Below the pieces are notes generated by a model, which was not told the origin of the DNA, made no database searches, and saw only the letters and a list, made by a program, of their open reading frames with translations. From Candidatus Electrothrix communis (GTDB taxonomy: Bacteria; Desulfobacterota; Desulfobulbia; Desulfobulbales; Desulfobulbaceae): 64,000 nt of DNA. Where the stretch lies: the NCBI GenBank assembly GCA_030644725.1, contig CP130629.1:4293501-4357500 (forward strand), given 5' to 3'. The translations under genes were made by a program, and so were the position numbers. This document shows positions 9,902 through 61,760 of the stretch, one piece after another (within the stretch, counting starts at the first letter, position 1; every line of letters begins with the position of its first letter).

Positions 9902-11323
9902 ATGAAACAGATGAAGAATGGCGTGGCCATCGGGGCTGTCGCCCTTTTTGCTTTAACTGGTTGTGTTGCGGATGTTGCCTATGTTCCACAGAATTCCGGG
10001 TCACAACCCTGTGTCCAGGGGCCTTGTGATGAACAACAGGGAGCTGGTCAAAAGGTAGTGGTAAAAGGAGGGCAGCAGGGGCAGCAGGTGTCTGCGCCTG
10101 ATGCAGTTGCGCCAACTTATGCTCAGCAAGGGCAGCAAGGGCAGGATCTTGGCGAAGGATTGCCTACAAATGTTAACCCCGGTGAGTGTTACTCTCGCTG
10201 TCTTGCCCCGGCTGTTTTTGAAGATGTAGAGGAAGAGATTGAGGTTGCTCCGGCTATGGAGCGGACCGAAATTATTCCTGCCGAGTACGAATGGGTAGAA
10301 GAACAGGTCGTTGCCAAAGAAGCATCTGAGGAAATTAAAGTTATTCCTGGGAGATATGAGCAGCAGACTGAGCAGGTTGTTGTCAAAGAAGAATCTGAAC
10401 AAGTCAAAGTTATTCCTGCACGGTACGAGTGGCAGGAAGTACAGGAAGTTGTCAAAGAGGCTTCTGAAGAATTTAAAGCTATTCCTGCGGTCTATGCATG
10501 GCGTGAAGGGCAGGTTATGGTCTCCCCGGAGATCGTAAAAATAACCTTGACCAACCCCGGTTACGAGGAAGTCAAAGAGCAGGTATTGGTCAAAGCTCCT
10601 TCTGCAAAGTGGATCAAAAAAGCGACGCATTGTTCTCCTGAAGATATCAAAATGGGTCTGACCGACTGTGATACCCTGTGTTATGTAGCCGTTCCCGCTA
10701 TGTACAAAATGGTTATCAAAAAAGTGCCGACAGACTGTGCCGGTGGAGTTGACGGATGCCGGCAGGTAGTGGTTATCCCCGCAGAATACAAGCCGGTTAG
10801 AACAAAGGTTGTTGTTGAGCCCGCAAGGACTGAGACTATTACTGTGCCTGCTGAGTACCGCACAGTCAGAAAACAGGTTATGATTGAGCCCGCCAGGACA
10901 GAGACGGTTGTTATTCCTGCTGAGTACAGAAATGTACAGAAGAAGGTTATGGTTGAACCAGCCCGAACTGAGGTTGTCCCGGTTCCTGCTGAGTACAAGA
11001 CTGTTAGGGTGAAAAAGCTTGTTAAAGAGGCTGAGGAAACAGTTGTTCAGGTTCCTGCCGAATACAAGACTATTGTTAAGAGCGTTAAGGTCTCCGACAG
11101 TAAGATCGTATGGCGTCCGGCTCTTTGTGAGGATGAAGCTGTTGATTCAAAAATCAGAGAGATGCAAAGTGCTTTGAGCCGGGAAGGTTTCTATACCGGA
11201 GAGGTTAACGGCGTACTGACCCAAGAGACCAACGAGGCGATTAGAGCGTATCAGGTTGAACGAGGGTTACCGCAAGGTGGTGGAATGACCCTTGAGACCC
11301 TTGAGTCGTTGGGGATTTATTAA
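9902..11323 (+). CDS. Repeat-built Cys-rich lipoprotein with peptidoglycan-binding domain (copy 1)
   Basis: Function unknown. 473 residues with a lipobox signal (ALFALTGC near residues 13-20), so probably a membrane-anchored lipoprotein. After a Gln-rich linker comes ECYSRCLAP, then about four repeats of a 20-residue unit like IPAEYEWVEEQVVAKEASEE. A Cys-containing core follows (ATHCSPEDIK, DCDTLCYVAVP), then about five units like VPAEYRTVRKQVMIEPARTE. The last 70 residues form a PG_binding_1 domain (MQSALSREGFYTGEVNGVL). The regular units suggest an elongated beta-rich rod reaching the cell wall. Copy 2 follows after a terminator. Copies of this type are usually labelled only as peptidoglycan-binding proteins. 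Confidence 0.85.
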   Translation: MKQMKNGVAIGAVALFALTGCVADVAYVPQNSGSQPCVQGPCDEQQGAGQKVVVKGGQQGQQVSAPDAVAPTYAQQGQQGQDLGEGLPTNVNPGECYSRCLAPAVFEDVEEEIEVAPAMERTEIIPAEYEWVEEQVVAKEASEEIKVIPGRYEQQTEQVVVKEESEQVKVIPARYEWQEVQEVVKEASEEFKAIPAVYAWREGQVMVSPEIVKITLTNPGYEEVKEQVLVKAPSAKWIKKATHCSPEDIKMGLTDCDTLCYVAVPAMYKMVIKKVPTDCAGGVDGCRQVVVIPAEYKPVRTKVVVEPARTETITVPAEYRTVRKQVMIEPARTETVVIPAEYRNVQKKVMVEPARTEVVPVPAEYKTVRVKKLVKEAEETVVQVPAEYKTIVKSVKVSDSKIVWRPALCEDEAVDSKIREMQSALSREGFYTGEVNGVLTQETNEAIRAYQVERGLPQGGGMTLETLESLGIY

Positions 11324-11340
11324 CGATTATGGGAAGGAAC

Positions 11341-11368
11341 AAAGGCGCTTAACGCGCCTTTGTTTTTT
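11341..11368 (+). terminator. Terminator between the two repeat-protein genes
   Basis: AAAGGCGC-ttaac-GCGCCTTT followed by GTTTTTTT, seventeen bases after the first gene's stop. It implies that the two paralogues are at least partly transcribed as separate units. Confidence 0.85.
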
Positions 11369-11413
11369 TACATCAAAACACTCTAGAAAAAACATTTGAA
11401 AAAGGAAAAAGGA

Positions 11414-12694
11414 ATGTTGAAGAAGAGAAATTTTATGATCGCTGCCGCTTTTTTGTTCGCGGTATCTTCACCGGCTGTAGCGCAGCAGTATGGGCAGGTT
11501 GATCCTGGTCAATACGTTAATGAGGGCTTTCCAACCAATGTTCAGCCTGGTGAGTGCTACTCCCGCTGTCTTGCTCCGGCCGTTTACGAGGACGTGGAGG
11601 AGGAAATCGAAGTAGCACCTGCTATGGAGCGAACAGAAATTACCCCGGCAGAGTACGAATGGGTTGATGAGCAGGTTATTGCCAAAGAGGCTTCTGAGCA
11701 GATTGAGACACTTCCTGCGAAATTTGAGTGGACACAAGAAGAGGTCGTCGTCAAGGAAGCATCAGAGGAGATCAAAGTTGTTCCTGCCCAGTATGAGTGG
11801 CGGGACGAGCAGGTCGTCGTCAAAGAGGCTACCGAGGAGTTGAAATCTATTCCTGCCAAGTATGAGTGGATTGACGAGCAGATCATGATTTCTCCTGAGG
11901 TTATCACCATCACCATCACCGATCCTGGTTATGAAGAGGTGAAGGAACAGGTTTTGGTCAAGGCACCTTCGGCGAAATGGATCAAAAAAGCAACCCATTG
12001 TTCTCCTGAAGATATCAAAATGGGTCTGACCGACTGTGATACCTTGTGTTATGTAGCGGTCCCCGCTATGTATAAAATGGTTATCAAGAAAGTGCCGACC
12101 GATGATTGTGGCGGCGTAATCGGTGGATGTCGTCAGGAAGTCGTGATTCCTGCTGAATACAAGGTTGTTCGGAAAAAAGTCGTTGTTGAGCCTGCAAGGA
12201 CTGAGACAGTATCTGTACCGGCAGAGTACAGAACGATGCGTAAGCAGGTCATGATTGCTCCGGCTAGGACAGACGTTGTAACAAATCCACCTGTTACCCA
12301 GATGATTCGCAAGAAAGTAATGGTTGCTCCGTCCCAGACACGAGTAATTCCTGTACCTCCTGAATACAAGAGTGTCAGGGTGAAGAAACTGGTGAAACCG
12401 GCTGAAGAGAACGTTATTACAGTGCCAGCCGAGTACAAAACCATTATTAAGAAGGTTAAGGTTAGCGACAGTAAAATTGTTTGGAAACCTGCACTTTGTA
12501 AGGATGAGCTTGTTGACTCAACTATTCGTCAGGTACAGACAGCCTTAAGTCAGATGGGTTTTTATACCGGTTTGATTGACGGGCAAATGAATCAGGCAAC
12601 CAATGAGGCTATTAGAGCTTTTCAGGTTGAGAACGGTCTTGCTCAGGGCGGCGGATTGACAGAAGAGACTGTTGAAGCTTTAGGGATTTACTAG
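11414..12694 (+). CDS. Repeat-built Cys-rich secreted protein with peptidoglycan-binding domain (copy 2)
   Basis: Paralogue of the preceding gene, function unknown. About 426 residues from ATG at 11414, which has an AAAAAGGA ribosome site; a TTG at 11396 is less likely. It has a cleavable-type signal (FAVSSPAVAQQ) in place of the lipobox, so this copy should be soluble in the periplasm or exported. The order is the same: ECYSRCLAP, four acidic units like IPAKYEWIDEQ, the Cys core, four basic units like VPAEYRTMRKQVMIAPARTD, and a PG_binding_1 domain (VQTALSQMGFYTGLIDGQM). The Cys core is almost identical in DNA to copy 1, whereas the repeats have diverged. Confidence 0.85.
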   Translation: MLKKRNFMIAAAFLFAVSSPAVAQQYGQVDPGQYVNEGFPTNVQPGECYSRCLAPAVYEDVEEEIEVAPAMERTEITPAEYEWVDEQVIAKEASEQIETLPAKFEWTQEEVVVKEASEEIKVVPAQYEWRDEQVVVKEATEELKSIPAKYEWIDEQIMISPEVITITITDPGYEEVKEQVLVKAPSAKWIKKATHCSPEDIKMGLTDCDTLCYVAVPAMYKMVIKKVPTDDCGGVIGGCRQEVVIPAEYKVVRKKVVVEPARTETVSVPAEYRTMRKQVMIAPARTDVVTNPPVTQMIRKKVMVAPSQTRVIPVPPEYKSVRVKKLVKPAEENVITVPAEYKTIIKKVKVSDSKIVWKPALCKDELVDSTIRQVQTALSQMGFYTGLIDGQMNQATNEAIRAFQVENGLAQGGGLTEETVEALGIY

Positions 12695-12736
12695 GATTTC
12701 ATGTAGGAAATCTTTAGAAAATCTGTAGGAACAGAA

Positions 12737-12769
12737 AGCCAAGGGCAATTGCCCTTGGCTTTTTTTTTG
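12737..12769 (+). terminator. Terminator after repeat protein copy 2
   Basis: AGCCAAGGGCAATTGCCCTTGGCT followed by about nine T residues, 43 bases after the stop codon. Confidence 0.9.
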
Positions 12770-12961: not shown

Positions 12962-15121
12962 TTATTCTGTAGTGAGCTCGTTACTCGGAACGCAGGGTAA
13001 CGTAATCGTAAAAACCACACCGGATCTCCCATCAGCAAGGTTCTGCACATTTACTCGCCCATCATGATGATCCAGCACTGTACGAACAATATATAATCCA
13101 AGGCCCAGATGGGGTGATTTGTCTTTGACGGTTCGACTGGAAATCATAGAGTGAAAGATTTGTTGCTGCATATCCGGCTCAATAATCGGTCCTTGATTGA
13201 TAACGAGCAGGGATATATTGTTGTCTTCATGTTGCTCAAGCTGAAGTTCAATCGCTGTGTCCGGAGTATGGAAAGATACAGCATTTTCAACAAGCTTCTC
13301 TAAAGCCTGACGTAATCGTACGGGATCACCGTTCACCAAGACCTCATGTTCAGGCGCTTGATAGAGGATGTCGACCTCGCTGAAGGCAGGTCGCCAACCA
13401 TGCTCAAGCCATACTGATACAGCTTTGCCGAGGTCCAGCAACTCCATACTGTCTAACAACAGGGCATTCTTCAAGGTAGTAGCTTCCCGAATTGATGTGA
13501 GAAGCTCCTCCAGTCTCTGGACATCGCGCTCGACCCACTGAATATACTCCATAATACGATCTGAAGGGTTCGTATCAAGTTGTTCCTGACGAAGATTTTT
13601 CACTGAGGCAGCAATACCAGCCAAGGGCGTTCGCATTTCATGTTCAAGGTTATCAGCCATTTGCTCCCGGTGTTCAATCTGCTGTTGGAGCTGGCTGAGC
13701 ATGGACTCTAGGGTGCGACCTAAATCAGCGATTTCATCACTTGCCGAACTCCTGTTGATGGTATTGAGGATCCGTCCGTCAGGAGTAATTGCAGAAGCTG
13801 CTTGGTTGCCCAGTCGACGAATTCGTGCGGAGATGCGGAAGGCAAAAAGGAGCAGGATACAGCCACCAAAAAGAAAGGCGATAACAGAGAGAGAAATGGT
13901 TTCCTCAATTAAGCGGTTGCTGAGAGAAAGAATGGAGTTCGTTGTTTGCTCGACAACTACGGTACCGATGACCTCCTCCTGTTCGTATAATGGGGTAATG
14001 GCGGTCATGACCTCCACCTGCCCGTCTTCCATTAAATAGCTGGTAACAGAATGCTTGCCAGCAAGTCCTTCGCGGATCCCTTGCAAGTCCAGCTCTGTCG
14101 GCTGGGAGACCTGGTCTTTAAATTCCGTTAAAAAGGGATTGATAAAAAAACGATAAAGGGGACGCATCAGCTCATTAATACGACCAGAGAGTTTGTCCGC
14201 CTGTTCTTTGTTGGGTATTTCTGAGGTGCGAAGGCTGCCGACCTGAGCTCTTACTCTTTGATTGCGATCAACAATTCGAATACGCGCATACGGGCGATCA
14301 AGGGATTTCAGTATTGCTTCAATGGGGGTTGAGGTCGTCAAGAGCAGACCCGGTGCCTTGTCTTCCTTTAAGTTTGAGGTGCCGATGAGTGCTTTGATAT
14401 CTCTGGATGCAACATCATCGATATCAGCTATTGTGAAGGCAAGTTTGTTGCCGAGTAACTCCAGATGAATACGTATTTCCAGGATATAGCCGCTGTCGGT
14501 CTGATTCCAAACCCCTTGGATGCGCTGCTCGCTGACAGGGAATTTGATCGGAACATCGGGCATGAGAAAGCCATTAACCCATCCTGGCTCGTAGGCTGTC
14601 ATGAGATACTTTCTTTGGCCTATATCATCACCTATAATAATTTGTAAATGATCGGAACGATCAAGGCGTAACGAGTTTTTGCTCCGATAAATGACATGAT
14701 CATCCTGGACGTCAAAGAGCGCATAAAGGTATTTATCCTGCTTGCCAGCAAGATGTCGAAAATTAAGGGATTTGAGGACGTAGTTTCCTTCTGAGCTAAT
14801 GAGGTGCTCACGGGCAAATTCTTCAGCTTCAGCAAGTTCCGGGCGCCAATCATCGAGCTGGCCGTCCAACCTGATGGTATTGCTGAGCTGAAAGAGATAG
14901 AGATCGCGGTCTTGGTTCAGGCCATGAAATTGTTCTCTATCAAAGAGGTCGTTCCGGTCGGTTAATGCAGCTGAAACCGCTTGGGCGGTAAGACTGAGAG
15001 TCTCCTGCTGACTGATGATCAGGCTGTTCTTCAGGGTGTTGTTCAGGCGCATCCCTAGTAAAGGGAAAAGGAGGAGCAGAAGGGAAAGGAGAGCGAGTTT
15101 TAGGCGCAGAGAGAAACGCAT
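12962..15121 (-). CDS. pdsS: Sensor histidine kinase of the dedicated sortase system
   Basis: Membrane sensor kinase matching the layout of the proteobacterial dedicated sortase system kinase. 719 residues: N-terminal membrane segment (LKLALLSLLLLLFPLLG), a large periplasmic region containing a CBM9-like fold (RLDGQLDDWRPELAEAEEF ... AYEPGWVNGF), a second membrane span (VIAFLFGGCILLLFAFRI) near residue 415, HAMP-type linker, HisKA with LEHEMRTPLAG near residue 490, and HATPase with NAVSFH and GLGLYIVRTVLDHHDG. The CBM9-like domain suggests that it senses a glycan or wall ligand. Gene order pdsR then pdsS on the minus strand fits a two-component operon. Confidence 0.88.
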   Translation of the reverse strand: MRFSLRLKLALLSLLLLLFPLLGMRLNNTLKNSLIISQQETLSLTAQAVSAALTDRNDLFDREQFHGLNQDRDLYLFQLSNTIRLDGQLDDWRPELAEAEEFAREHLISSEGNYVLKSLNFRHLAGKQDKYLYALFDVQDDHVIYRSKNSLRLDRSDHLQIIIGDDIGQRKYLMTAYEPGWVNGFLMPDVPIKFPVSEQRIQGVWNQTDSGYILEIRIHLELLGNKLAFTIADIDDVASRDIKALIGTSNLKEDKAPGLLLTTSTPIEAILKSLDRPYARIRIVDRNQRVRAQVGSLRTSEIPNKEQADKLSGRINELMRPLYRFFINPFLTEFKDQVSQPTELDLQGIREGLAGKHSVTSYLMEDGQVEVMTAITPLYEQEEVIGTVVVEQTTNSILSLSNRLIEETISLSVIAFLFGGCILLLFAFRISARIRRLGNQAASAITPDGRILNTINRSSASDEIADLGRTLESMLSQLQQQIEHREQMADNLEHEMRTPLAGIAASVKNLRQEQLDTNPSDRIMEYIQWVERDVQRLEELLTSIREATTLKNALLLDSMELLDLGKAVSVWLEHGWRPAFSEVDILYQAPEHEVLVNGDPVRLRQALEKLVENAVSFHTPDTAIELQLEQHEDNNISLLVINQGPIIEPDMQQQIFHSMISSRTVKDKSPHLGLGLYIVRTVLDHHDGRVNVQNLADGRSGVVFTITLPCVPSNELTTE

Positions 15122-15188
15122 GGAGTCTGATGCCTAATAATAAGGGGTAGGAGAAATACGGTTATGTGCATATTTTCAGGCGGCGTTC

Positions 15189-15881
15189 TTATGGCTGCCA
15201 GCGATATCCCATGCCATATTCGGAACGAATAGCCTTGAAATCGGGATCAACATCTTGAAATTTATCTCGGATTCTTCGGATATGCGCAGCAATCGCATTA
15301 TTGGTGACAATGACGCTGGCCGCCTCCATCAACTGCTCGTGATTTTTGACATGCCCTGGCCGCCTGGCGAGACAGACCAGTATCCAGAATTCAGTCAGGG
15401 TTAGGCTGATCGGATGGCTCTTCCAGTATACTTCCTTCCGATCTTCATCAATCTGCAAATCCTTATGCTGGATAATCTTGTTTTCCGTTGTATTGCTGCG
15501 TAAGACCTCAACGGTTCGAAACAGAGCAGATATTCTGGCAGGGAGAAAGTCCAGGGTTGTTGTATCCTTGGTCAGGTAGTCCCAGGCACCCAGGCGCAGG
15601 CCGGAAACCCGATCTAGGTCCGAATTGCGAGCTGTGAGGAAAATAATCGGAATAACAGGGGATAAAGAGCGAAGGTGTTGGCAGAGATCAAAGCCACCAG
15701 CCATTTCCTCTCCGAGCATGACATCTAAGATGGCAAGATCAGGTAGAGAACGGGCAAAGGCGGACATGGCTTCGGGCTTGCTGCTGTAGGTGGCAACGTC
15801 ATAGCCTTCGCGCTGGAGGGCCTGAGCATAATTAGCCTGCAGTCTGGAATCATCTTCAACAAGAGCGATTCGATAGGTCAT
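15189..15881 (-). CDS. pdsR: Response regulator of the dedicated sortase system
   Basis: OmpR-family transcription regulator, 230 residues. The receiver domain (RIALVEDDSRLQANYAQAL) has phosphoacceptor Asp in DLAILDVMLGEE, Thr in IIFLTARNSD and Lys in DYLTKD. The C-terminal winged helix contains SLTLTEFWILVCLARRPGHV and IAAHIRRIRDKFQDVDPDF. It lies 67 bases upstream of pdsS. Probable targets are the sortase substrate and the small anchor-protein gene, both preceded by phased GTCATNAT repeats. A perfect CTTCTTCA/TGAAGAAG inverted repeat at 15967-15983 lies in its own upstream region. Confidence 0.9.
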   Translation of the reverse strand: MTYRIALVEDDSRLQANYAQALQREGYDVATYSSKPEAMSAFARSLPDLAILDVMLGEEMAGGFDLCQHLRSLSPVIPIIFLTARNSDLDRVSGLRLGAWDYLTKDTTTLDFLPARISALFRTVEVLRSNTTENKIIQHKDLQIDEDRKEVYWKSHPISLTLTEFWILVCLARRPGHVKNHEQLMEAASVIVTNNAIAAHIRRIRDKFQDVDPDFKAIRSEYGMGYRWQP

Positions 15882-16170
15882 GGCAATGGCAGTGTCCGAG
15901 GCCTGTTTTGGGCGTTAAGATTAATAAAAAGCGTATGAATCTCGTTATTGCGTAATCGTTGATCAACTTCTTCATTGAAGAAGTGAAACGCCCGGTGGTA
16001 AAAAGAAGACTGCTGTATACATCAGGTCATTTCGCCGGACATGCCCTAGCGGTATTTATTGTAAAATGCTGAGGCTAAGCCCGCTTTTCGGGTGGACTTT
16101 GAATAAATGAACCATAAAATAATTCATGGTTCATGTAAAGAAATTCTTTTTACGCGCGACATGCACTTAC
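15882..16170. promoter_or_regulatory. Region upstream of pdsR
   Basis: About 290 bases without a gene between pdsR and the stop of the CAP lipoprotein gene. It contains the inverted repeat CTTCTTCATTGAAGAAG at 15967-15983, a plausible operator or attenuator for pdsRS. Nothing else is recognised. Confidence 0.3.
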
Positions 16171-16767
16171 TTAATAAGGCTTCTGACCGACCATGTTTCC
16201 TCGAGGAGAGTACTGGCATACCCAGATCTGTGCTTTATTTGAGCAGGCAGCCATACCGCATCCGACCTCAGTCGTACTTTTCCAGACAACCTGGGTGTAA
16301 TGTCCGCAGACACCGTGACAGCTGTTGCTTGCATAATCATAATCTTTCACTTCATTACCCCAAGCATCAACCACGTTCTGCTCGATTATCTCCTGCATTG
16401 ACGAAGTGCCGTCAGATTGTTGTGCTCCTCCTGCCCAATAAATATTTTCTCCGTTAGGACCTGTGCTGTGCTTCATTTTGCAACCATCCTGGGTCAACTG
16501 GCCAGCCCATTGTTGGGCACTGACGGCTAAATCGTTCGACCACTTGAGGGCAGGTACGCCGGTCTTGGTGCGCCATTGATTATGGGCAGCAACCATGGTC
16601 ACCGGATTAATGGTGGATTTTTTTTGGGTAATAGAGGTGTTCAGGGCTGCCTCGGTATCCATCAAGGTAGGGGAAGCTTTTTCTGTTGTAAAAGAGTTGG
16701 TCGTTGGGCTCGTTACGCAGGATGTGAGCAGGAATCCTGAAAGTAATGTTATGGTTTTTTTATTCAT
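16171..16767 (-). CDS. CAP-domain (SCP/PR-1-like) lipoprotein, copy 1
   Basis: Secreted CAP-superfamily protein. About 198 residues from ATG at 16767, which has AGGAGG upstream; a longer start at 16803 is possible. The lipobox LLSGFLLTSC near residue 18 predicts a lipoprotein. CAP signatures: AHNQWRTKTGVPALKWSNDL, GENIYWAGG, DYASNSCHGVCGHYTQVVW, IWVCQYSPRGNM. The family includes sterol- or glycan-binding and protease-like proteins; the specific role here is unknown. It is a paralogue of the gene at 18147-18704, with the P460 cytochrome between them. A candidate c-di-GMP-I-type riboswitch lies about 320 bases upstream on the same strand. Confidence 0.9.
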   Translation of the reverse strand: MNKKTITLLSGFLLTSCVTSPTTNSFTTEKASPTLMDTEAALNTSITQKKSTINPVTMVAAHNQWRTKTGVPALKWSNDLAVSAQQWAGQLTQDGCKMKHSTGPNGENIYWAGGAQQSDGTSSMQEIIEQNVVDAWGNEVKDYDYASNSCHGVCGHYTQVVWKSTTEVGCGMAACSNKAQIWVCQYSPRGNMVGQKPY

Positions 16768-17089
16768 CCTGTGGTTTCCTCCTGTAATTATTTGAAAAAA
16801 CATCTTTTGTGGAATTCTCTGCGCAGTTATATATGAACCTTATGTGGTATAACAGTTGGGAAAAGAAAATTACTCTGAACGTAGACGCAGGCATTACTCT
16901 GCCGCAATCAATTGTCCGGCGATTAAAGGTCGAGATTCAGCACCGAAGTGATCGGTCTGAAGAAGTTTTTGAGCGATACATGAAAAGAAACGGCAACAGG
17001 AAATGAGCCTGACGATAAAGTAGGAAGTTGTACTTTGGATAAGCACTTTTTTTGCGGAATTCATAACAGACTTCCCGGTATTCAGACAT

Positions 17090-17170
17090 GAAAGCAGGTA
17101 ACCCGGCGGTCTCCTCAGAGATCCGTGGCTTTCCGACACCGCCTCACGACGGCTGTGGCTTTTTCAACTT
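17090..17170 (-). ncRNA. Candidate c-di-GMP-I (GEMM-I)-like riboswitch aptamer
   Basis: On the minus strand a hairpin CCGTC-GTGA-GGCGG with a GNRA tetraloop is followed by TGTCGGAAAGCCACGG, then ATCTC-TGAG-GAGAC and CGCCGGGTTACC. This order, with AAAGCCACGG and CCGGGTTACC as landmarks, is that of GEMM-I aptamers. The 5' strand is less typical: the usual GGCAAACC is replaced by an AAAAAGCCACAG segment. The next gene downstream is the CAP lipoprotein at 16767. No intrinsic terminator is obvious between them, so the expression platform is unclear. Confidence 0.55.
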
Positions 17171-17416
17171 TCCAATTCCGACCGGAAAGTGAAGGCACCT
17201 ACTCAGTAGGTAAGTATTGCCATTTATTATGGTAACATAATATTATAAGCCTTGCGGTTCGTGTTTATCAAGTATTTTTCTAAAAAAGAAGACGTTCAGT
17301 CAGCATCAGGATATTTCCATACGTATCAGCTCGCTGTTGTATGATTTTTTTTAAATATTGTGAATTCTAGTCTGTTTGTTTCTTATCTGCATTTTGCACT
17401 TATCTGATGAAGACAA

Positions 17417-17899
17417 TTACTTGTCAAACTCATGAACCAGGATATAGTCATTTTTGGCTTTATTGAGGTGGCAGGCTATGCATTTTTCAGATTTACCCGC
17501 CTCCTGCACTTCGCCGGTCGGGCTGTATTGGGCCCAGAACCAGTCACCTTTAGTCGGGTTGTATCCTTGTACTTTGTACATAATTGTGATTGCCTTCACT
17601 TCATCTGCCGGACTCAAATTATATTTAACCACCATTGACCCGTTTTGAAGCGGTGGGCCTTTTGAATCCAAAGCCTGTTTGTTGACATATATTTTATGCT
17701 TCGGTCCGTGCGGGCCTTTGCTGTTGTACGTCCCCTGATGATCCGGCCAGAATGCCCATGTTTCAAATGGATGAATGTCGGTGATGTGCTTCCACACCGC
17801 TTTGGCCTCCGGTTCCGGCATTTTTTCCGGCTGAGCGAAAAAGGTGCAACCCAACAATATGCCGCTGATAAAACATCCTGTGGCTATTTTTTTAACCAT
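17417..17899 (-). CDS. Cytochrome P460-family mono-haem lipoprotein
   Basis: Predicted periplasmic c-type haem lipoprotein, 160 residues. The signal ends in a lipobox (FISGILLGC, residue 18). One haem-binding motif, CIACH, lies near the C-terminus (residues about 140-144). The body (KIYVNKQAL, MVVKYNLSPADEV, ITIMYKVQGYNPTKGDWFWA) matches the cytochrome P460 fold, whose members oxidise hydroxylamine or act as detoxifying or electron-transfer haem proteins. Substrate is not predicted. It lies between the two CAP paralogues on the same strand, with gene-free leaders on both sides, so a single transcript is uncertain. Confidence 0.85.
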   Translation of the reverse strand: MVKKIATGCFISGILLGCTFFAQPEKMPEPEAKAVWKHITDIHPFETWAFWPDHQGTYNSKGPHGPKHKIYVNKQALDSKGPPLQNGSMVVKYNLSPADEVKAITIMYKVQGYNPTKGDWFWAQYSPTGEVQEAGKSEKCIACHLNKAKNDYILVHEFDK

Positions 17900-18050
17900 G
17901 CGATTAACCTTGTTGAATGAGATGTAATTACAGATAGGTAATCTTTGTTGTGGGATTATGTGGTCGAGTTCAAGTCTGTTTTTTTCAGATGAGCATTTTG
18001 CACGTAGGAATCAATAAGAAATACCTTACCCCTCCTTATGCCGGGTGCCG

Positions 18051-18115
18051 TAGGGGCAAATCTATGTGTTTGCCCAGACGGTGAGAGTTCAGGTCAGGCC
18101 CGGGGACCTGACCCT
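18051..18115. repeat. Dispersed GTAGGGGC-family palindromic element
   Basis: Begins GTAGGGGCAAATCTATGTGT, continues with TTGCCC, and ends GGGGACCTGACCCTAC. The same design (GTAGGGGCAGACCTGTGTGT then CTGCCC) occurs at 39732 and inside purL at 63739-63800. Confidence 0.65.
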
Positions 18116-18146
18116 ACAGTCCCGCATCTAAAAAATGGGGCCTTAC

Positions 18147-18704
18147 TTAATAAGGCTTCTCACCGACCATATTACCTGCTGGAGTATATTGGCACACCCA
18201 AATTTGCGATTTATCCTCGCAGGTCGCCATGCCGCAACCGACTTCCGTCGTGGCCTTCCAAACGACCTGGGTATAATGTCCGCAGACGTCGTGGCAGCTG
18301 TTGTCGCTGTAATCATAGTCTTTAATTTCATCGCCCCATTTGTCGACGACGTTCTGCGCTGTTATGTTCTGCATTTTTGTGCTGCCGTCGGAGCTGGTAG
18401 CCGGGCCAGCTATGTAAATATTTTCTCCGTATTTTCCCCCACTATGTCCGGGGTGACAACCGTTTTCAGTCAGGTGTTGCGCCCATTTTTGAGAGGCTTC
18501 GGCTAATTCGTCCGACCATTTGAGATCCGGGACACCGGTTTTGGAACGCCATTGGTTATGAGCGGTGGTTATTGCTACGGAATCAACAGCTTTTTGCCCT
18601 TCAGCCGCGTTGCTTGTTCCTCCAGTCACAGAAAGCAGGAGGCAAAGCGTCCCTGTCAGAGTCAATCTGCTGTGAAGATTCAATTTTCTTGGTTTTATTT
18701 CCAT
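18147..18704 (-). CDS. CAP-domain (SCP/PR-1-like) secreted protein, copy 2
   Basis: Close paralogue of the 16171-16767 protein, 185 residues. It has a standard signal peptide (LTGTLCLLLSVTGGTSNAAEG) rather than a lipobox, so it should be released to the periplasm or exported, whereas copy 1 should be membrane-anchored. CAP signatures: AHNQWRSKTGVPDLKWSDEL, KYGENIYIAGP, CGHYTQVVWKATTEVGCGMA, WVCQYTPAGNMVGEKPY. Four Cys in the core could form disulfides. It sits between the P460 gene and the divergent sortase-substrate gene. Function unknown beyond the fold. Confidence 0.9.
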   Translation of the reverse strand: MEIKPRKLNLHSRLTLTGTLCLLLSVTGGTSNAAEGQKAVDSVAITTAHNQWRSKTGVPDLKWSDELAEASQKWAQHLTENGCHPGHSGGKYGENIYIAGPATSSDGSTKMQNITAQNVVDKWGDEIKDYDYSDNSCHDVCGHYTQVVWKATTEVGCGMATCEDKSQIWVCQYTPAGNMVGEKPY

Positions 18705-18843
18705 AGTAAATTACTCCTTTATGTGAGAGTTAAGGAAAGTGGTTTACTGCTGACCCGTCCCTGATAATTTTTTTAAAATATGTTTATTGGACAATATTGT
18801 CAAACTTTTTATTTTTACCGGAGAAATTATGCGACTGTTGAAA

Positions 18844-18950
18844 TAGTTGTACAGGATTTTTTTGCAGACAGAGGCAAGTTTGTCACAGACTGTCATTTTT
18901 TTTGAAAGACACGTCATCATCCAGCTGAAAGTCCGTCATGATCATCGTTC
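18844..18950 (+). promoter_or_regulatory. Candidate control region of the sortase substrate
   Basis: Contains TAGTTGTACAG (18844-18854), the 11-mer also seen at 9681-9691, and two GTCATNAT boxes at 18913 and 18935, 22 bases apart. The boxes recur at 21886, 21896, 21917 and 21939 (the last partial). The spacing fits an OmpR-type regulator such as PdsR. This is inference. Confidence 0.35.
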
Positions 18951-19012
18951 ATACTGTGTGCAGAAACTAGAAACGAACGGAGCAAGTTTTATCAACACAG
19001 GAGGATGTATTC

Positions 19013-21262
19013 ATGACACCGGAAGAAGAAAAAAGAGCTGTATCAGCCCCGTATATGGATCCCGGTTATTTGATGGTAACAATCTATACCCTTGGTGTGG
19101 CGATGCTCGTCCTGCTCGGGTGGTTCGGCAATGCCGGTGCTGTGCCCGGCGGAGAAAGCAGGCCGGGCGAAGCTGTTCGACAAGAAAGGCAGGAAATGTC
19201 AGCACCTGAGTTGGAACCTGAGTTAACACCTGATGCGGTGCAACAGGGTGAGCTGCTCCTGCCCGGAGCGGAGCCGGGAAAATATCGTCCAGCCCCCATG
19301 CTCTCTATGGATGTTGATATCAGGGTGAGCGGTATAGTTGCACGGGCCTCGGTCAAGCAGCGGTTTACCAATGACTCTGACGAGTGGGTTGAAGCCTTAT
19401 ACGTCTTCCCCCTTCCTGACGAGAGTGCTGTTGATCACCTGGAGATGCGGATTAACGACCGTCTTATTATCGGAAAAATTCAGAAAAAAGAAGAGGCTCG
19501 CCAAACCTATGAGACGGCGAAGAAGGAGGGAAAGAAAGCCTCGCTGCTCTCGCAATTGCGTCCCAATATGTTCACCACGGCGGTCGCTAATATCGGCCCC
19601 AAAGAAACCATCGTTATTCAGATTGAATATCAGCAGGTGGTGCAGCGGCAGGACAGGGTGTACTCGTTGCGCTTTCCCATGGTTGTTGGCCCGCGATATA
19701 CTCCAGGAGCCTCAGCTCATATTTTTGCCGAAAGCGGAAGAGGGGAGGGCGGAGAAGATGGATATACCATGAGTGCACATGGACTAACGGGAACATCGAT
19801 GGGGGCAGCGACAAGCGGTGTTCACTTTCCTGCATTGGAAGCACTCTCCGTTGTCGGGCCGGATGAGGAACCGGTTAATCCGGTAACTCTTCATGTGAAC
19901 CTTGCCGCTGGCATGGAAATATCTCGGATTGCCAGCCTCTATCATGGTATCGCAAGTAAGAAAAATGAGGATAGCAGCCTGGATATTCAGTTTACCGGAG
20001 AGGTAACAGCGGACCGTGATTTTGTTCTGGAATGGGAGCCGGAAAGATCGCAAACTCCAATGGCTACCCTGTTCAGCGAGCAGCGGGGAGATGAACGCTA
20101 TATGCTGCTCATGGTCATGCCGCCGGAACAGGAGCAACAGGAACCCCTTGCCCGTGAGGTCGTTTTCATCCTTGATACGTCCGGGTCAATGGGCGGCGAA
20201 TCCATCAGGCAGGCCAAAACAGCCTTGCTCATGGCCGTGGAGCGCATGCGTCCGCAGGATCGATTCAATGTGATTGAATTTAACAGCCGGGCAAGAGCGT
20301 TGTTTCGCGACAGCAAGGCGGGCAGCCGGGAAAACGTAGAGCAGGCAGTGGCCTTTATTGATCAGCTTGAGGCTGACGGTGGTACTGAGATTAGAAAGGC
20401 CCTGGAATTGGCCCTAGACGGCAAGCAGAAACACGAACGGATTCGACAGGTTGTTTTTTTGACAGACGGTTCTGTCAGCAATGAAGAAGAACTCTTCACC
20501 TTGATCCATAATCAGCTCGGAGATTCCCGTTTGTTCACTGTGGGGATCGGCTCGGCCCCGAATAGCTATTTCATGACCAGGGCCGCAACTCTGGGGAGAG
20601 GGAGTTATACTTTTATCGGCAAACTGGAAGAAGTGCGGGAGAAAATGACCAGCCTGTTTGCCATGCTTGAGCAGCCTGCTGTCACCAATCTTCAGCTGAG
20701 CGGAGCTGACGGCTTTGAAATTCTTCCTGCTCCGCTCCCGGATCTCTATCAGGGAGAGCCCCTGACCGTGGTTATGAAGGGGCGGGGGAGGGCGGATAAA
20801 CTGCTTCTTGCCGGGATGCAGGGCGGGTTAAAACCTTGGCGGGCAGCAATCGATACCATCGCCTTTGCTGAGAGACCGGGAATTGCCGTGCTCTGGGCAA
20901 GGAAGAAAATCAAAATTCTGATGGACAGCCTTGCCTCCGGAGCGGATGCACAACAGGTCGAACAGAAAGTGACAGAACTGGCGTTGACCAATCATCTTGT
21001 CAGTCGTTATACCAGCTTGGTGGCTGTGGAAGAAAAGATATCACGGCCCGGTGATTCTGATGGTTCCAACGATCCTGATGATCCGAATACGTCATTGCAG
21101 AAGCAGAAGGTAAAAACCAATCTACCAGTTGGCTGGGTGCATGATAAGGTTTTTGCGGGAGGAGCAAATACCGCCACCTCGGCACCTCTGTTCTTCTTGA
21201 TTGGCTTGTTTTTGCTGTCGTTATCCGCCTTTCTTTTCTGGATGCAATGGAGGAGACAATGA
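19013..21262 (+). CDS. Dedicated sortase target protein (VIT and VWA domains)
   Basis: Surface or envelope protein of the proteobacterial sortase-target type, 749 residues. An N-terminal membrane anchor (PYMDPGYLMVTIYTLGVAML) is followed by a VIT domain (residues about 95-230: VKQRFTNDSDEWVEALYVFP, TAVANIGPKETIVIQIEYQQ) and a VWA domain from about residue 385 with the MIDAS DTSGSMGGESI and LTDGS. The C-terminus has the sorting layout: GANTATSAPL, hydrophobic span FFLIGLFLLSLSAFLFW, basic tail QWRRQ. A clean LPXTG is absent; NLPVGW occurs about 20 residues earlier. Start chosen at ATG 19013 after AGGAGG. The sortase overlaps its stop. Confidence 0.92.
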   Translation: MTPEEEKRAVSAPYMDPGYLMVTIYTLGVAMLVLLGWFGNAGAVPGGESRPGEAVRQERQEMSAPELEPELTPDAVQQGELLLPGAEPGKYRPAPMLSMDVDIRVSGIVARASVKQRFTNDSDEWVEALYVFPLPDESAVDHLEMRINDRLIIGKIQKKEEARQTYETAKKEGKKASLLSQLRPNMFTTAVANIGPKETIVIQIEYQQVVQRQDRVYSLRFPMVVGPRYTPGASAHIFAESGRGEGGEDGYTMSAHGLTGTSMGAATSGVHFPALEALSVVGPDEEPVNPVTLHVNLAAGMEISRIASLYHGIASKKNEDSSLDIQFTGEVTADRDFVLEWEPERSQTPMATLFSEQRGDERYMLLMVMPPEQEQQEPLAREVVFILDTSGSMGGESIRQAKTALLMAVERMRPQDRFNVIEFNSRARALFRDSKAGSRENVEQAVAFIDQLEADGGTEIRKALELALDGKQKHERIRQVVFLTDGSVSNEEELFTLIHNQLGDSRLFTVGIGSAPNSYFMTRAATLGRGSYTFIGKLEEVREKMTSLFAMLEQPAVTNLQLSGADGFEILPAPLPDLYQGEPLTVVMKGRGRADKLLLAGMQGGLKPWRAAIDTIAFAERPGIAVLWARKKIKILMDSLASGADAQQVEQKVTELALTNHLVSRYTSLVAVEEKISRPGDSDGSNDPDDPNTSLQKQKVKTNLPVGWVHDKVFAGGANTATSAPLFFLIGLFLLSLSAFLFWMQWRRQ

Positions 21263-21825
21263 AGATAAACTGGTCATGGAAAATTATCCTTTTCCCTGCA
21301 ATCGTCGGGATGATCTGTTTTGGTAACGGGCTGTGGATACACGGCAAGGCCCTTTTGGCTCAAGTGCTCCTCCAACGGGCGTGGGCGCAGACCCAGGTTC
21401 GGGGAGAATCGGTTAAACCGTGGCCTTGGGCTGATACCTGGCCAGTGGCGAGACTGCGCACAGAAAAATATAATCAGGATCTTATCGTGCTTGCAGGGCA
21501 GTCTGGTCAGGCCCTTGCCTTCGGGCCGGGCATGCTGGAAGTAGGGGGCAAACCGGGGCAGCCGGGATTTTGTATTCTGGCTGCCCACCGGGATACCCAT
21601 TTCAGCTTTCTTCGCAGGGTGCAAGTAGGAGATGTTTTTACCTTGGAGGATAGGCAGGGCAGGCTATGGCAATATCGGGTTAATGGGATGACAATACGTC
21701 AGGCCGCAGAGCTTTATCTGGAGCCGCAAGAAAGTTCACAGTTAGCCTTGGTCACCTGTTATCCTTCTCAGGCCCTGAGTTCAGGCACCCGTCAGCGCTA
21801 CGTTGTTCTGGCAGACAGGATATAG
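21259..21825 (+). CDS. Sortase, marine proteobacterial type
   Basis: Class of sortase found in Gram-negative bacteria, expected to cleave the VIT/VWA protein encoded just upstream. About 188 residues from ATG at 21259, which has GGAGGAG upstream and overlaps the previous stop as ATGA; an ATG at 21247 adds four residues. One N-terminal membrane segment (IILFPAIVGMICFGNGLW). Catalytic triad: His110 in FCILAAHRDTHFSFL, Cys167 in LVTCYP, Arg178 or Arg180 in GTRQRYVVL. The acceptor for the cleaved substrate is not known; this organism should have thin peptidoglycan and an outer membrane. Confidence 0.94.
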   Translation: MKINWSWKIILFPAIVGMICFGNGLWIHGKALLAQVLLQRAWAQTQVRGESVKPWPWADTWPVARLRTEKYNQDLIVLAGQSGQALAFGPGMLEVGGKPGQPGFCILAAHRDTHFSFLRRVQVGDVFTLEDRQGRLWQYRVNGMTIRQAAELYLEPQESSQLALVTCYPSQALSSGTRQRYVVLADRI

Positions 21826-22249: not shown

Positions 22250-22777
22250 ATGAAACAAAGCATTGAAGCGGAGCTGCAATATTGTCCCGATTGCATGGAT
22301 GAATACCGAGCGGAAATTACGACCTGTGCCGCTTGTAATATCCCCTTGGTTAGCGGAAAAAAAATGCTGGAAGTTAGGCAAAATCCGGCGCGGGAACAGG
22401 CAGGGCGTACTATGGTGATCAGCCCGGATGATGAGCTGGTGAGCATCAGAAGGGGCCCTCTTGTTCAAATGAAGGATTTTCAGTCCATGCTCAAACGGGA
22501 AGGAATCCCCTCAATAGCTGTGAGTGAAGACAGTAACTGCGGGCAGGGAAGTTGCGCGACTAATTTGTTTGTCCAGATAAGAAAGAGCGATCTACAGGAT
22601 GTCGTGGCAATTCTGGAGCGCGATCATGTCCGCTCAACAGGATTGGAAGACCATGATTTGTCCACAGCCGGGGCTGTCATTGATACAGCAGCGGAGCAGG
22701 CAACCTGCCCGGCCTGCGGTTACAGCTTCTCGACCACCGAAGCTTCCTGCCCTGATTGCGGGCTTTGTTTCGGTTGA
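22250..22777 (+). CDS. Protein with two zinc ribbons flanking a DUF2007-like domain
   Basis: 175 residues, probably cytoplasmic. The N-terminal zinc ribbon CPDCMDEYRAEITTCAAC and C-terminal ribbon CPACGYSFSTTEASCPDC flank a middle segment (LVQMKDFQSMLKREGIPSIA ... LFVQIRKSDLQDVVAIL) that resembles DUF2007-type putative signal-transducing domains. The central CGQGSC may add a metal site. It lies ten bases after the small anchor gene, so it is probably co-transcribed with it. A hairpin without a T run (22812-22833) follows the stop. Function unknown. Confidence 0.75.
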   Translation: MKQSIEAELQYCPDCMDEYRAEITTCAACNIPLVSGKKMLEVRQNPAREQAGRTMVISPDDELVSIRRGPLVQMKDFQSMLKREGIPSIAVSEDSNCGQGSCATNLFVQIRKSDLQDVVAILERDHVRSTGLEDHDLSTAGAVIDTAAEQATCPACGYSFSTTEASCPDCGLCFG

Positions 22778-57582: not shown

Positions 57583-60822
<3,240 letters not shown>

Positions 60823-60927
60823 GGGATATTGAGGGTATAACCCAGGAACGCCCGGTGTTAAAACACCGGGCTATTATCGGGCTGTCCCTCCGGGACGCTG
60901 TGCGTCCTTCTGAGGCAGAAGCTTAAC

Positions 60928-60976
60928 CCGTCCCGGAGGGACGCACCAAACATAGCCCAGGGTTTTAACCCTGGGT
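60928..60976. repeat. REP-like palindromic repeat left of RAYT
   Basis: CCGTCCCGGAGGGACGCACC then AAACATAGCCCAGGGTTTTA and ACCCTGGG. Almost the same sequence occurs at 61521-61570 on the far side of the Y1 transposase gene. Confidence 0.8.
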
Positions 60977-61066
60977 GGGGCCGGTTAACCCATGAGGCGG
61001 GAAGATAGGGATACACCGTGTCCCGGATGCCACCCCGCGATAAATCACGGAGCAAAGGGAGAAATC

Positions 61067-61519
61067 ATGTCGCATTCATATATCAGTTGCCACATCCAGT
61101 ACGTGTTCAGCACCAAAGGACGGGAACCCTGGATCACACCGGATATCCACGAACGCCTGTTTACATATATGAATGGAACAGCACAGAAAAACAACATGGC
61201 CTCATTGCGGGTCGGCGGCACCGAAGACCATGTGCATCAGCTCGTCTCCCTTCCAGCAACCCTGTCCATCGCCAAGGCGGTCCAGCTCATCAAGGGCAAT
61301 TCCTCAAAATGGATTCACGAGACCTTTTCGCAACACCGACATTTTTATTGGCAGGAAGGCTACGGCGCATTCAGCGTCAGCGTTTCGCAAATTGAAAGGA
61401 TCATCGCATATATAGATAACCAGCAGGAACATCATCGTTTCAGCTCCTTTGAAGAAGAATTCCTGTTGTTGCTGAAAAAACATCGGACGGAATACGATGA
61501 ACAGTATGTGTTCGGATAA
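61067..61519 (+). CDS. REP-associated Y1 transposase (RAYT, IS200-like)
   Basis: About 150 residues from ATG at 61067 with AAAGGGAG upstream. HUH single-strand transposase: HIQYVFSTKGREPWITPDIH, the HUH motif in GGTEDHVHQLVSLPA, SKWIHETFSQHRHFYWQEGY, and the catalytic Tyr in ISQIERIIAYIDNQQEHH-type sequence (IERIIAYIDNQQEHHRF). REP-like repeats flank it on both sides, and CACCCCGCGATAAATCACGG occurs just upstream and again at 61666-61685. It may act on those repeats rather than carry itself. Confidence 0.9.
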   Translation: MSHSYISCHIQYVFSTKGREPWITPDIHERLFTYMNGTAQKNNMASLRVGGTEDHVHQLVSLPATLSIAKAVQLIKGNSSKWIHETFSQHRHFYWQEGYGAFSVSVSQIERIIAYIDNQQEHHRFSSFEEEFLLLLKKHRTEYDEQYVFG

Positions 61520-61520
61520 C

Positions 61521-61695
61521 CAGTCCCGGAGGGACGGCACCGAACATAGCCCAGGGTTTTAACCCTGGGGCGGTTAACTCTGGGGCCAGGGCTTCAGGCC
61601 GCAATCGGCGTATGCCCCGCGCGATACCCGCCCTGCGATACGATATTATCCCCCGGCGATCCCCACCCCGCGATAAATCACGGGGCTATGAGCGA
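61521..61695. repeat. REP-like palindromic repeats right of RAYT
   Basis: CCAGTCCCGGAGGGACGGCA, CATAGCCCAGGGTTTTAACC and CTGGGG at 61521-61570 mirror the left flank. Further on, CACCCCGCGATAAATCACGG recurs at about 61666-61685. No gene lies between 61520 and 61760. Confidence 0.75.
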
Positions 61696-61760
61696 ATGTC
61701 CCGCCGGGACAAGAAAACCCTGACGGCACCCGTTCCCAGGTGCCGTCAGCACCGCCATCC

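What the first reader, a model, noticed from the sequence alone, without database searches (positions are those of the whole stretch)
9902..12694. Tandem envelope rods: two Cys-rich repeat proteins with wall-binding ends, one lipidated and one soluble
The paralogues share four acidic units, a conserved Cys core, four to five basic PARTE units and a peptidoglycan-binding domain, but differ at the anchor (lipobox versus cleavable signal). The acid/base block layout suggests self-association or pairing. Function is undescribed as far as I can tell, and they sit next to the sortase locus kinase gene.
Basis: partly seen in the sequence, partly recalled or inferred. Interest (0 to 1): 0.62.

Follow-up and report, generated by a model that had tools for sequence, protein, structure and literature searches.

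The report
Mirror-armed wall-bound rods of cable bacteria
Two neighbouring genes of a cable bacterium encode cysteine-rich exported proteins made of two repeat arms, equal in unit number in every relative measured, with a cell-wall-binding domain at the end; they are candidates for parts that brace the envelope around the bacterium's electric fibres, which remains to be tested.

Summary
ORF1 (9902-11323, lipobox) and ORF2 (likely start ATG 11414, to 12694) are paralogues with two repeat blocks, a Cys core and a peptidoglycan-binding domain above Pfam's cut-off. The genome is Candidatus Electrothrix, a cable bacterium. The pair is in 7 of 8 sampled Electrothrix; the sister genus (probably Ca. 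Electronema, not named by any search) has one ordinary rod in 5 of 5.

(1) Each protein is two arms of 23-residue units with the same number in both: 2+2, 3+3, 4+4, 5+5 or 6+6, in 30 of 30 measurable proteins. One of them, from Methylobacterium, was found after the rule was noted. The arms probably pair. (2) Three Cys are in 19 of 19 cable rods and 0 of 10 non-cable relatives. (3) A paralogue with 22-27 Cys occurs in 4 of 13 genomes, two from each genus.

The acid/base argument fails: the sister genus has two basic blocks. The sortase link fails: the rods do not follow the sortase.

Best reading: disulphide-clamped two-ply rods fixed to peptidoglycan, ORF1 also membrane-tethered. A tie to the conductive fibres is untested. 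Both AlphaFold models were poor.

The parts
9902..11323 (+). ORF1, 473 aa, predicted lipoprotein rod with C-terminal peptidoglycan-binding domain
   Evidence: orthologue in 7 of 8 Electrothrix
9902..9964 (+). ORF1 signal peptide with lipobox LTGC (lipid Cys21)
   Evidence: sequence motif; the Cys is in all 7 ORF1 rows
9965..10186 (+). ORF1 variable linker (aa 22-95) with Cys37 and Cys42; residues before the first core Cys vary from 95 to 144 between species while arm A keeps its length
10187..10612 (+). ORF1 arm A: Cys96 to Trp237, CYSR + six 23-residue units, acidic
10613..10678 (+). ORF1 Cys core between the arms (Cys244, Cys256; next Cys260 opens arm B)
10679..11113 (+). ORF1 arm B: Cys260 to Trp404, six 23-residue units plus a short stretch with Cys279..Cys286, basic
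11114..11320 (+). ORF1 Cys409 and PG_binding_1 domain (Pfam match aa 416-470)
11336..11366 (+). hairpin followed by a T run between ORF1 and ORF2 (intrinsic-terminator-like)
   Evidence: fold -19.3 kcal/mol, z -6.2; not listed by the consensus scan; hairpins in the same gap in L013, L025 and L014
11414..12694 (+). ORF2, 426 aa, predicted soluble exported rod with C-terminal peptidoglycan-binding domain
   Evidence: orthologue in 7 of 8 Electrothrix
11414..11482 (+). ORF2 signal peptide, predicted cut after Ala23 (AVA|QQ)
   Evidence: sequence motif
11555..11980 (+). ORF2 arm A: Cys48 to Trp189, CYSR + six 23-residue units, acidic
11981..12046 (+). ORF2 Cys core between the arms (Cys196, Cys208; next Cys212 opens arm B)
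12047..12484 (+). ORF2 arm B: Cys212 to Trp357, six units plus a short stretch with Cys232..Cys239, basic
12485..12691 (+). ORF2 Cys362 and PG_binding_1 domain (Pfam match aa 370-423)
12733..12764 (+). terminator-like hairpin after ORF2
12962..21825 (.). neighbours, not part of the finding: sortase-system kinase (12962-15121 -) and regulator (15189-15881 -), two CAP-domain proteins, cytochrome P460-like, VIT/VWA sortase target (19013-21262 +), class GN sortase (21247-21825 +)
   Evidence: kinase and regulator below, target and sortase above their NCBIfam cut-offs; the rods do not follow the sortase

Best explanation
The two genes make periplasmic rods fixed to peptidoglycan. Shown by sequence: export signals, a wall-binding domain at the C-terminus, two arms with the same number of 23-residue units, and Cys at the arm ends. 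Inferred: arm A folds back on (or pairs with) arm B unit by unit, so that a two-ply rod results, clamped at its ends by disulphides among the Cys. ORF1 also has a lipid anchor and a linker of variable length, so it would tie a membrane (probably the outer one) to the wall. ORF2 is the free, wall-bound form, built with a nearly identical Cys core. In the cable lineage the rods have more units (5+5 and 6+6, against 4+4 in the next genus g14) and three further Cys, which fits a role in bracing the periplasm that carries the fibres. The fibre link is an inference and is untested.
For: PG_binding_1 above cut-off in both. Equal unit number in both arms: 28 of 28 two-arm rows (27, one); a four-cap protein reads as 3+3+3+3 (positions, re-read with the rule in mind) and a Methylobacterium protein as 2+2, the latter found after the rule was noted. 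In 21 of 21 pairs of 7 representative proteins, arm A scores best against arm A and arm B against arm B of the other protein, so the units were not gained by doubling a whole arm. Cys: three in 29 of 29 rows, three more in 19 of 19 cable and 0 of 10 non-cable rows; Cys232 and Cys239 are present or missing together in 14 of 14 Electrothrix rows, 12 with both and 2 with neither, as expected of a disulphide pair. The core is 94.7% identical between paralogues within a genome, the wall-binding domain 62%. Codon usage: ORF2 ranks 1 and ORF1 ranks 3 of 41 window ORFs in likeness to rpoB and its neighbours, a weak sign of high expression. Published fibre sheaths are protein fibres on a polysaccharide layer, most likely peptidoglycan; they are rich in S, disulphides are suggested, and they withstand SDS/EDTA (PMC8238962, passages).
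Against: Both AlphaFold models are of low confidence (mean pLDDT 51.2 and 45.6), so neither fold-back nor beta structure is shown; the second model left most of arm B without strands. Disulphides, lipidation, membrane choice and wall binding are untested. The rows are related, so the Cys and arm counts are few evolutionary events, not many. Within one protein, arm A and arm B score 49-73 bits against each other, as much as some distant A-A pairs. Relatives occur outside the cable clade (8 of 244 non-cable genomes of the order; 2 of 24 in another family), so the basic function is not tied to conduction. The fibre-sheath paper reads the Amide I band (1643 cm-1) as mainly disordered protein, which does not favour a beta-rich main component.
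Confidence: 0.5

Rival explanations
1. General membrane-to-wall tether, like other lipoprotein tethers, with no special tie to the fibres; the extra Cys and units are envelope reinforcement in a long filament.
For: Non-cable relatives exist; 5 of 10 full-length ones have a lipobox-like Cys and 10 of 10 the three shared core Cys.
Against: Does not by itself explain why three more Cys are fixed in 19 of 19 cable rows and in 0 of 10 relatives, nor the hyper-Cys paralogue in both genera.
Confidence: 0.3
2. Structural component of the fibre itself: the rods polymerise by half-staggered pairing of arm A of one chain with arm B of the next, cross-linked by Cys, and form the insulating shell or bind nickel.
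For: Equal arms, cable-only Cys, opposite block charges in Electrothrix, expression-like codon bias, S-rich and disulphide-suggesting fibres on a wall layer. No fibre protein is established in the passages read.
Against: Charges do not fit in the sister genus. The Amide I band is read as disordered. No metal site is shown. Related proteins occur outside the cable clade.
Confidence: 0.15
3. Part of the dedicated sortase system next door: the rods are its scaffold or regulated output.
For: Adjacent kinase and regulator genes in the window and in 5 of 5 other Electrothrix loci.
Against: Sortase in 6 of 8 Electrothrix and 0 of 5 sister-genus genomes, rods in 7 of 8 and 5 of 5. No sorting signal. 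In 4 of 4 sister-genus loci the rod sits beside the aldolase/dehydrogenase gene without the sortase genes.
Confidence: 0.03

Closest known systems
PG_binding_1 (PF01471) proteins, such as the C-terminal region matched by NCBIfam HxsA (TIGR03979) and spore SleB (TIGR02869)
   Same: The C-terminal wall-binding domain.
   Different: Those NCBIfam hits lie at the C-terminal end and below their cut-offs; the repeat arms and Cys caps have no hit above a curated cut-off in Pfam or NCBIfam and no confident PDB sequence match.
Outer-membrane-to-peptidoglycan lipoprotein tethers (Pal and OmpA family, Lpp; recalled)
   Same: ORF1 would work like one: lipobox at one end, wall-binding domain at the other.
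   Different: Different wall-binding domain (no OmpA-type hit), a repeat rod between, several Cys, and a soluble paralogue beside it.
Proteobacterial dedicated sortase system (TIGR03784, 03785, 03787, 03788)
   Same: Next-door genes in the window and in other Electrothrix.
   Different: The rods are neither sortase nor target, and their occurrence does not follow the sortase.
Conductive fibres of cable bacteria (PMC8238962; PMC11976967)
   Same: Same organisms and same compartment; the fibres are S-rich and lie on a wall layer.
   Different: No protein is established for the fibres in the passages read, and no metal site or location is shown here.

Membership tests
PG_binding_1 domain proteins (PF01471) | HMM score above Pfam's gathering cut-off | tested here: met
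   36.6 and 41.9 bits against 23
PG_binding_1 domain proteins (PF01471) | binds peptidoglycan in vitro | not testable with these tools
   needs a pull-down
OM-wall lipoprotein tether (Pal, OmpA, Lpp kind) | lipobox (ORF1) | tested here: met
   LTGC at aa 18-21, the Cys in 7 of 7 ORF1 rows; motif only
OM-wall lipoprotein tether (Pal, OmpA, Lpp kind) | OmpA-type wall-binding domain or Lpp-type C-terminal Lys | tested here: not met
   no OmpA-type family among the Pfam hits up to E = 1; C-termini are ...LGIY
OM-wall lipoprotein tether (Pal, OmpA, Lpp kind) | outer-membrane location | not testable with these tools
   -
Sortase targets | C-terminal sorting signal with hydrophobic segment | tested here: not met
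   both chains end in the wall-binding domain, read by eye
Dedicated sortase system | occurs together with the class GN sortase | tested here: not met
Multihaem nanowire cytochromes | CXXCH haem motifs | tested here: not met
   none in the two sequences, read by eye
Cable-bacterium fibre protein | present in both cable genera | tested here: inconclusive
   7 of 8 Electrothrix and 5 of 5 of the sister genus g10; that g10 is Ca. Electronema is inferred from its place in the rpoB tree
Cable-bacterium fibre protein | found in extracted fibres, binds the nickel cofactor | not testable with these tools
   -

The most novel reading that the evidence does not exclude
The rods are building parts of the conductive fibre system itself: chains zip together arm A to arm B, are locked by the cable-specific Cys, and hang the fibre on the wall (ORF1 from the membrane side, ORF2 along the wall). 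Arm length then acts as a ruler that was extended as the fibre compartment evolved, and the hyper-Cys paralogue is a further cross-linker or metal-binding variant.
Probability: 0.15. Interest if true: 0.95.

Novelty: new variant of a known kind. Interest (0 to 1): 0.66.

Why it matters
In the passages I could read, no protein is established as the material of the electric fibres of cable bacteria. Here is a small, concrete candidate set for the fibre-wall interface: exported, with a wall-binding domain, kept in Electrothrix and its sister genus, with Cys fixed in that clade and in none of the 10 relatives compared. Apart from that, the equal-arm rule (n units plus n units over five size classes) is an unusually exact constraint on a repeat protein. 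It makes a simple structural prediction, that the two arms pair.

Tried and rejected
AlphaFold2 of ORF2 (6 rows) and of the ORF1 C-terminal half (6 rows): low confidence. I therefore ran no fold search and use the models only as a hint of beta strands.

Sortase link: tested by profile and rejected. Acid/base pairing: tested by block charge and rejected as a general feature.

First rpoB tree: the G011 row was an antisense ORF, my error. Repeated with the right strand for G011 and without G212. There g1 + g10 100/99, g14 outside them 98/96; g14 is a single row with under half of the columns.

Family tree: the 29-row tree carries a warning that long branches meet between the cable and non-cable groups and is rooted at the midpoint. 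With four hyper-Cys rows added the branches are longer, those rows differ in composition, their place is unsure, and the g10 rods fall next to the non-cable rows (82/94) instead of with Electrothrix. The Electrothrix pair stays together (96/91). I rely for the g10 position, which is therefore less certain than the bootstrap says.

Searches for more homologues to test the arm rule: order and class of G212, phylum sample, viral contigs and phages gave nothing new. Plasmids gave nothing with a g14 core, one Methylobacterium hit with G638 as query, and only that same place with the Methylobacterium stretch. Genomes of other phyla could not be searched here, so a wider spread of the family is not excluded.

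Rows dropped before counts: fragments G017 (C52) and G070 (C391). The four hyper-Cys rows are kept out of the 29-row Cys count and could not be measured for arms by the script. G479b was first measured as 177/157 and noted as not fitting; it was re-read by its four Cys caps. G006 (69% complete) has no detected rod. Rfam was not searched.

Promoter and terminator scan: 1 promoter-like site against 3.9 expected by chance; the hairpin between the genes was not listed although direct folding shows it.
Full report
WHAT IS THERE. The window lies in a 4.85-Mb single contig. Same-genus genome G004 carries the pair on a contig of 134,848 bases, the length of the Candidatus Electrothrix aarhusensis contig MTKO01000070 that came up by name, and an rpoB tree puts the window's genome next to G004 (83/82). 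So this is a cable bacterium of the genus Ca. Electrothrix. The two ORFs are real, on the plus strand; ORF2 should start at ATG 11414. Both have a C-terminal PG_binding_1 domain above Pfam's cut-off. Nothing else passes a curated cut-off in Pfam or NCBIfam except PG_binding_2 at the same place, and PDB sequence hits are weak (best E 0.0061) and at the C-terminal end. ORF1 has a lipobox Cys in 7 of 7 orthologues; ORF2 has an ordinary signal peptide.

WHO HAS IT. With the core as query (no wall-binding domain), 20 of 257 genomes of the order match: 7 of 8 in the window's genus (the missing one is 69% complete), 5 of 5 in genus g10, 3 of 5 in g14, and 5 others. A phylum-wide sample gives 2 of 395, one of them the window's genome (the same with a non-cable query). 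One further family has 2 of 24. Genus g10 is the sister of Electrothrix in the rpoB tree (100/99), with g14 next (98/96; one row, under half of the columns). I take g10 to be Ca. Electronema, the second described cable genus; no call names it. Each g10 genome has one ordinary rod gene, beside the same aldolase/dehydrogenase gene that precedes ORF1 in the window in 4 of 4 g10 loci examined (L019, L020, L021, L031). In the 29-row family tree the ORF1 clade (96/99) and the ORF2 clade (100/100) lie together inside Electrothrix (100/100), so the pair arose by duplication in that genus (see the caution under Tried and rejected).

TWO ARMS OF EQUAL LENGTH. The 23-residue period is far beyond chance. 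Cutting each protein at its Cys and Trp marks gives two arms: arm A = C-x-x-x + n units ending in Trp, arm B = C-x + n units ending in Trp. The C-to-W distances are 72/70, 95/93, 118/116 and 141/144-146. These are n = 3, 4, 5 and 6 in both arms; Electrothrix arm B is 5-7 residues longer than six exact units, in the stretch with Cys232..Cys239. All 28 two-arm rows obey (27, G504). G479b was first noted as not fitting; it has four Cys caps, and between cap and Trp the distances are 72, 72, 70, 70, that is 3+3+3+3 (positions, differences taken by hand, a reading made with the rule in mind). After I had written the rule down, a plasmid search found one relative in Methylobacterium bullatum; its arms are 49/47, exactly 2+2. 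Five size classes all match; if arm sizes were paired at random among five classes, only 1 of 120 pairings would do so (my arithmetic; the classes are related by descent, so this is a guide and not a proper probability). Among 7 representative proteins, arm A scores best with arm A and arm B with arm B of the other protein in 21 of 21 pairs, so the equality did not come from doubling a whole arm; within one protein, A and B score 49-73 bits. The simplest cause is that arm A and arm B pair unit by unit. The A-A-B-B order of the four-cap protein would suit a nested fold-back. This is inference; the structure predictions were too weak to show it (pLDDT 51.2, pTM 0.23, strands of mostly 7 and 12 residues alternating; pLDDT 45.6, pTM 0.31, most of arm B without strands).

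CYSTEINES. Three Cys (ORF2 48, 212, 362) are in 29 of 29 rows. Three more (52, 196, 208) are in 19 of 19 cable rows and 0 of 10 non-cable rows. Cys232 and Cys239 are in 12 of 14 Electrothrix rows and missing together in the other two, both ORF1. ORF1 has two more in its linker, in 7 of 7. The rows are not independent: the cable-only Cys are best seen as one set of changes on one branch. Of 96 columns invariant in the cable rows, 22 are absent from all 10 non-cable rows, and 3 of those 22 are Cys; the cable chains hold 1.9% Cys overall. The core around these Cys is the most constrained part: 94.7% identical between the paralogues of one genome (pooled over 7), against 88% in the N-terminal cap, 66% and 73% in the acidic and basic blocks and 62% in the wall-binding domain. 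At fourfold sites in the core, paralogues in one genome differ less (0.42) than paralogues across genomes (0.56); the other regions differ little (0.54-0.59 against 0.58-0.61). That hints at gene conversion in the core (the sites are few and not independent).

A HYPER-CYSTEINE RELATIVE. Four of 13 genomes of the two genera, two from each, carry a third kind (409-449 aa from the chosen start, 22-27 Cys) in which Cys align with all eight ORF2 Cys in 4 of 4. In the other genomes of the two genera the query finds the ordinary rods (and a short remnant in G005), except G006, which has no match; in the 60 other family genomes only C-terminal stretches match, in 4 genomes. The window's own genome lacks this kind, so it is an accessory.

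CHARGE AND SORTASE. The C block is basic in 29 of 29 rows. The N block is acidic in Electrothrix (14 of 14) and basic in g10 (5 of 5). Acid/base zipping is therefore not a shared mechanism; marine against freshwater life may explain the difference (inference). The neighbouring VIT/VWA target and class GN sortase pass their NCBIfam cut-offs; the kinase and regulator have the dedicated-sortase models as best hits, below the cut-offs. The rods do not follow the sortase across genomes.

EXPRESSION. A strong hairpin with a T run lies between the genes and another after ORF2. Between the genes, hairpins with changed sequence fold in three other genomes; by eye G005 has one too, while G002 has hairpins without a clear T run. 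Codon usage of ORF2 and ORF1 ranks first and third of 41 window ORFs (not all of them need be genes) in likeness to rpoB and three neighbouring ORFs, which I read as rpoC (part), rplL and rplJ. Both are weak signs of a well-expressed structural protein.

LINK TO THE FIBRES. From passages and the Discussion of PMC8238962: the fibres are protein, lie on a polysaccharide sheath that is most likely peptidoglycan, are rich in S and Ni, may hold many disulphides, and survive SDS/EDTA; the Amide I band was read as mainly disordered. From PMC11976967 (outline, passages and one section): no nickel-binding fibre candidate was identified, a cytochrome family is proposed for extra- or intercellular conduction, and the fibres of the Electronema and Electrothrix strains differ in shape. 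The passages seen of PMC13047784, PMC11247825, PMC10580974 and PMC12093952 establish no fibre protein; the earlier PilA idea is doubted there. Passages of PMC6307468 give fibres of about 50 nm in the periplasm of each ridge. Searches for cable bacteria with 'peptidoglycan-binding' or with 'cysteine-rich' gave 0 papers; preprints and most subscription journals are not in that library, and the 2019 genome and proteome paper was not held. The rods fit the interface of fibre and wall by predicted address, chemistry and lineage, but nothing here shows that they touch the fibre.

VERDICT. The rod, wall-binding and two-anchor reading is supported by sequence. The acid/base and sortase arguments are not. 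The new points are the equal-arm rule, the cable-only Cys and the hyper-Cys relative.

Noticed in passing
L028:350-1630 (+), L027:6200-7744 (-), L029:7578-8828 (-), L030:915-2144 (-): Hyper-Cys paralogue (22-27 Cys in 409-449 aa from the chosen starts) with the same Cys frame and wall-binding end, in 4 of 13 genomes of the two genera; the two Electrothrix copies share three neighbouring genes.
   Followed up: partly
G005:C1:2044474-2044659: Open frame of 188 aa whose C-terminal part is 52% identical to the hyper-Cys kind; possibly a remnant.
   Followed up: no
G007:C1:1196523-1199137: The class GN sortase match is in two pieces about 2 kb apart, as if interrupted by an insertion.
   Followed up: no
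G003, G005, G007 (whole genomes): No NicO/RcnA match at E <= 0.001 in three Electrothrix of 96% completeness, although a passage of PMC11247825 reports rcnA in all closed cable genomes; conversely G011, G013 and G043 outside the two genera do match, with many His in the G011 and G013 proteins.
   Followed up: no
window 22250-22777 (+): 175-aa ORF with weak HypA and double-zinc-ribbon hits, below the curated cut-offs.
   Followed up: no
window 58001-64000: G+C is 0.56-0.60 against 0.43-0.54 in the rest of the window.
   Followed up: no
L155:1348-2061 (+): Methylobacterium bullatum relative (237 aa, 2+2 arms) with a Gly/Tyr-rich tail where the cable proteins have the wall-binding domain (no family search run on it); the plasmid table used here lists no gene there.
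   Followed up: partly
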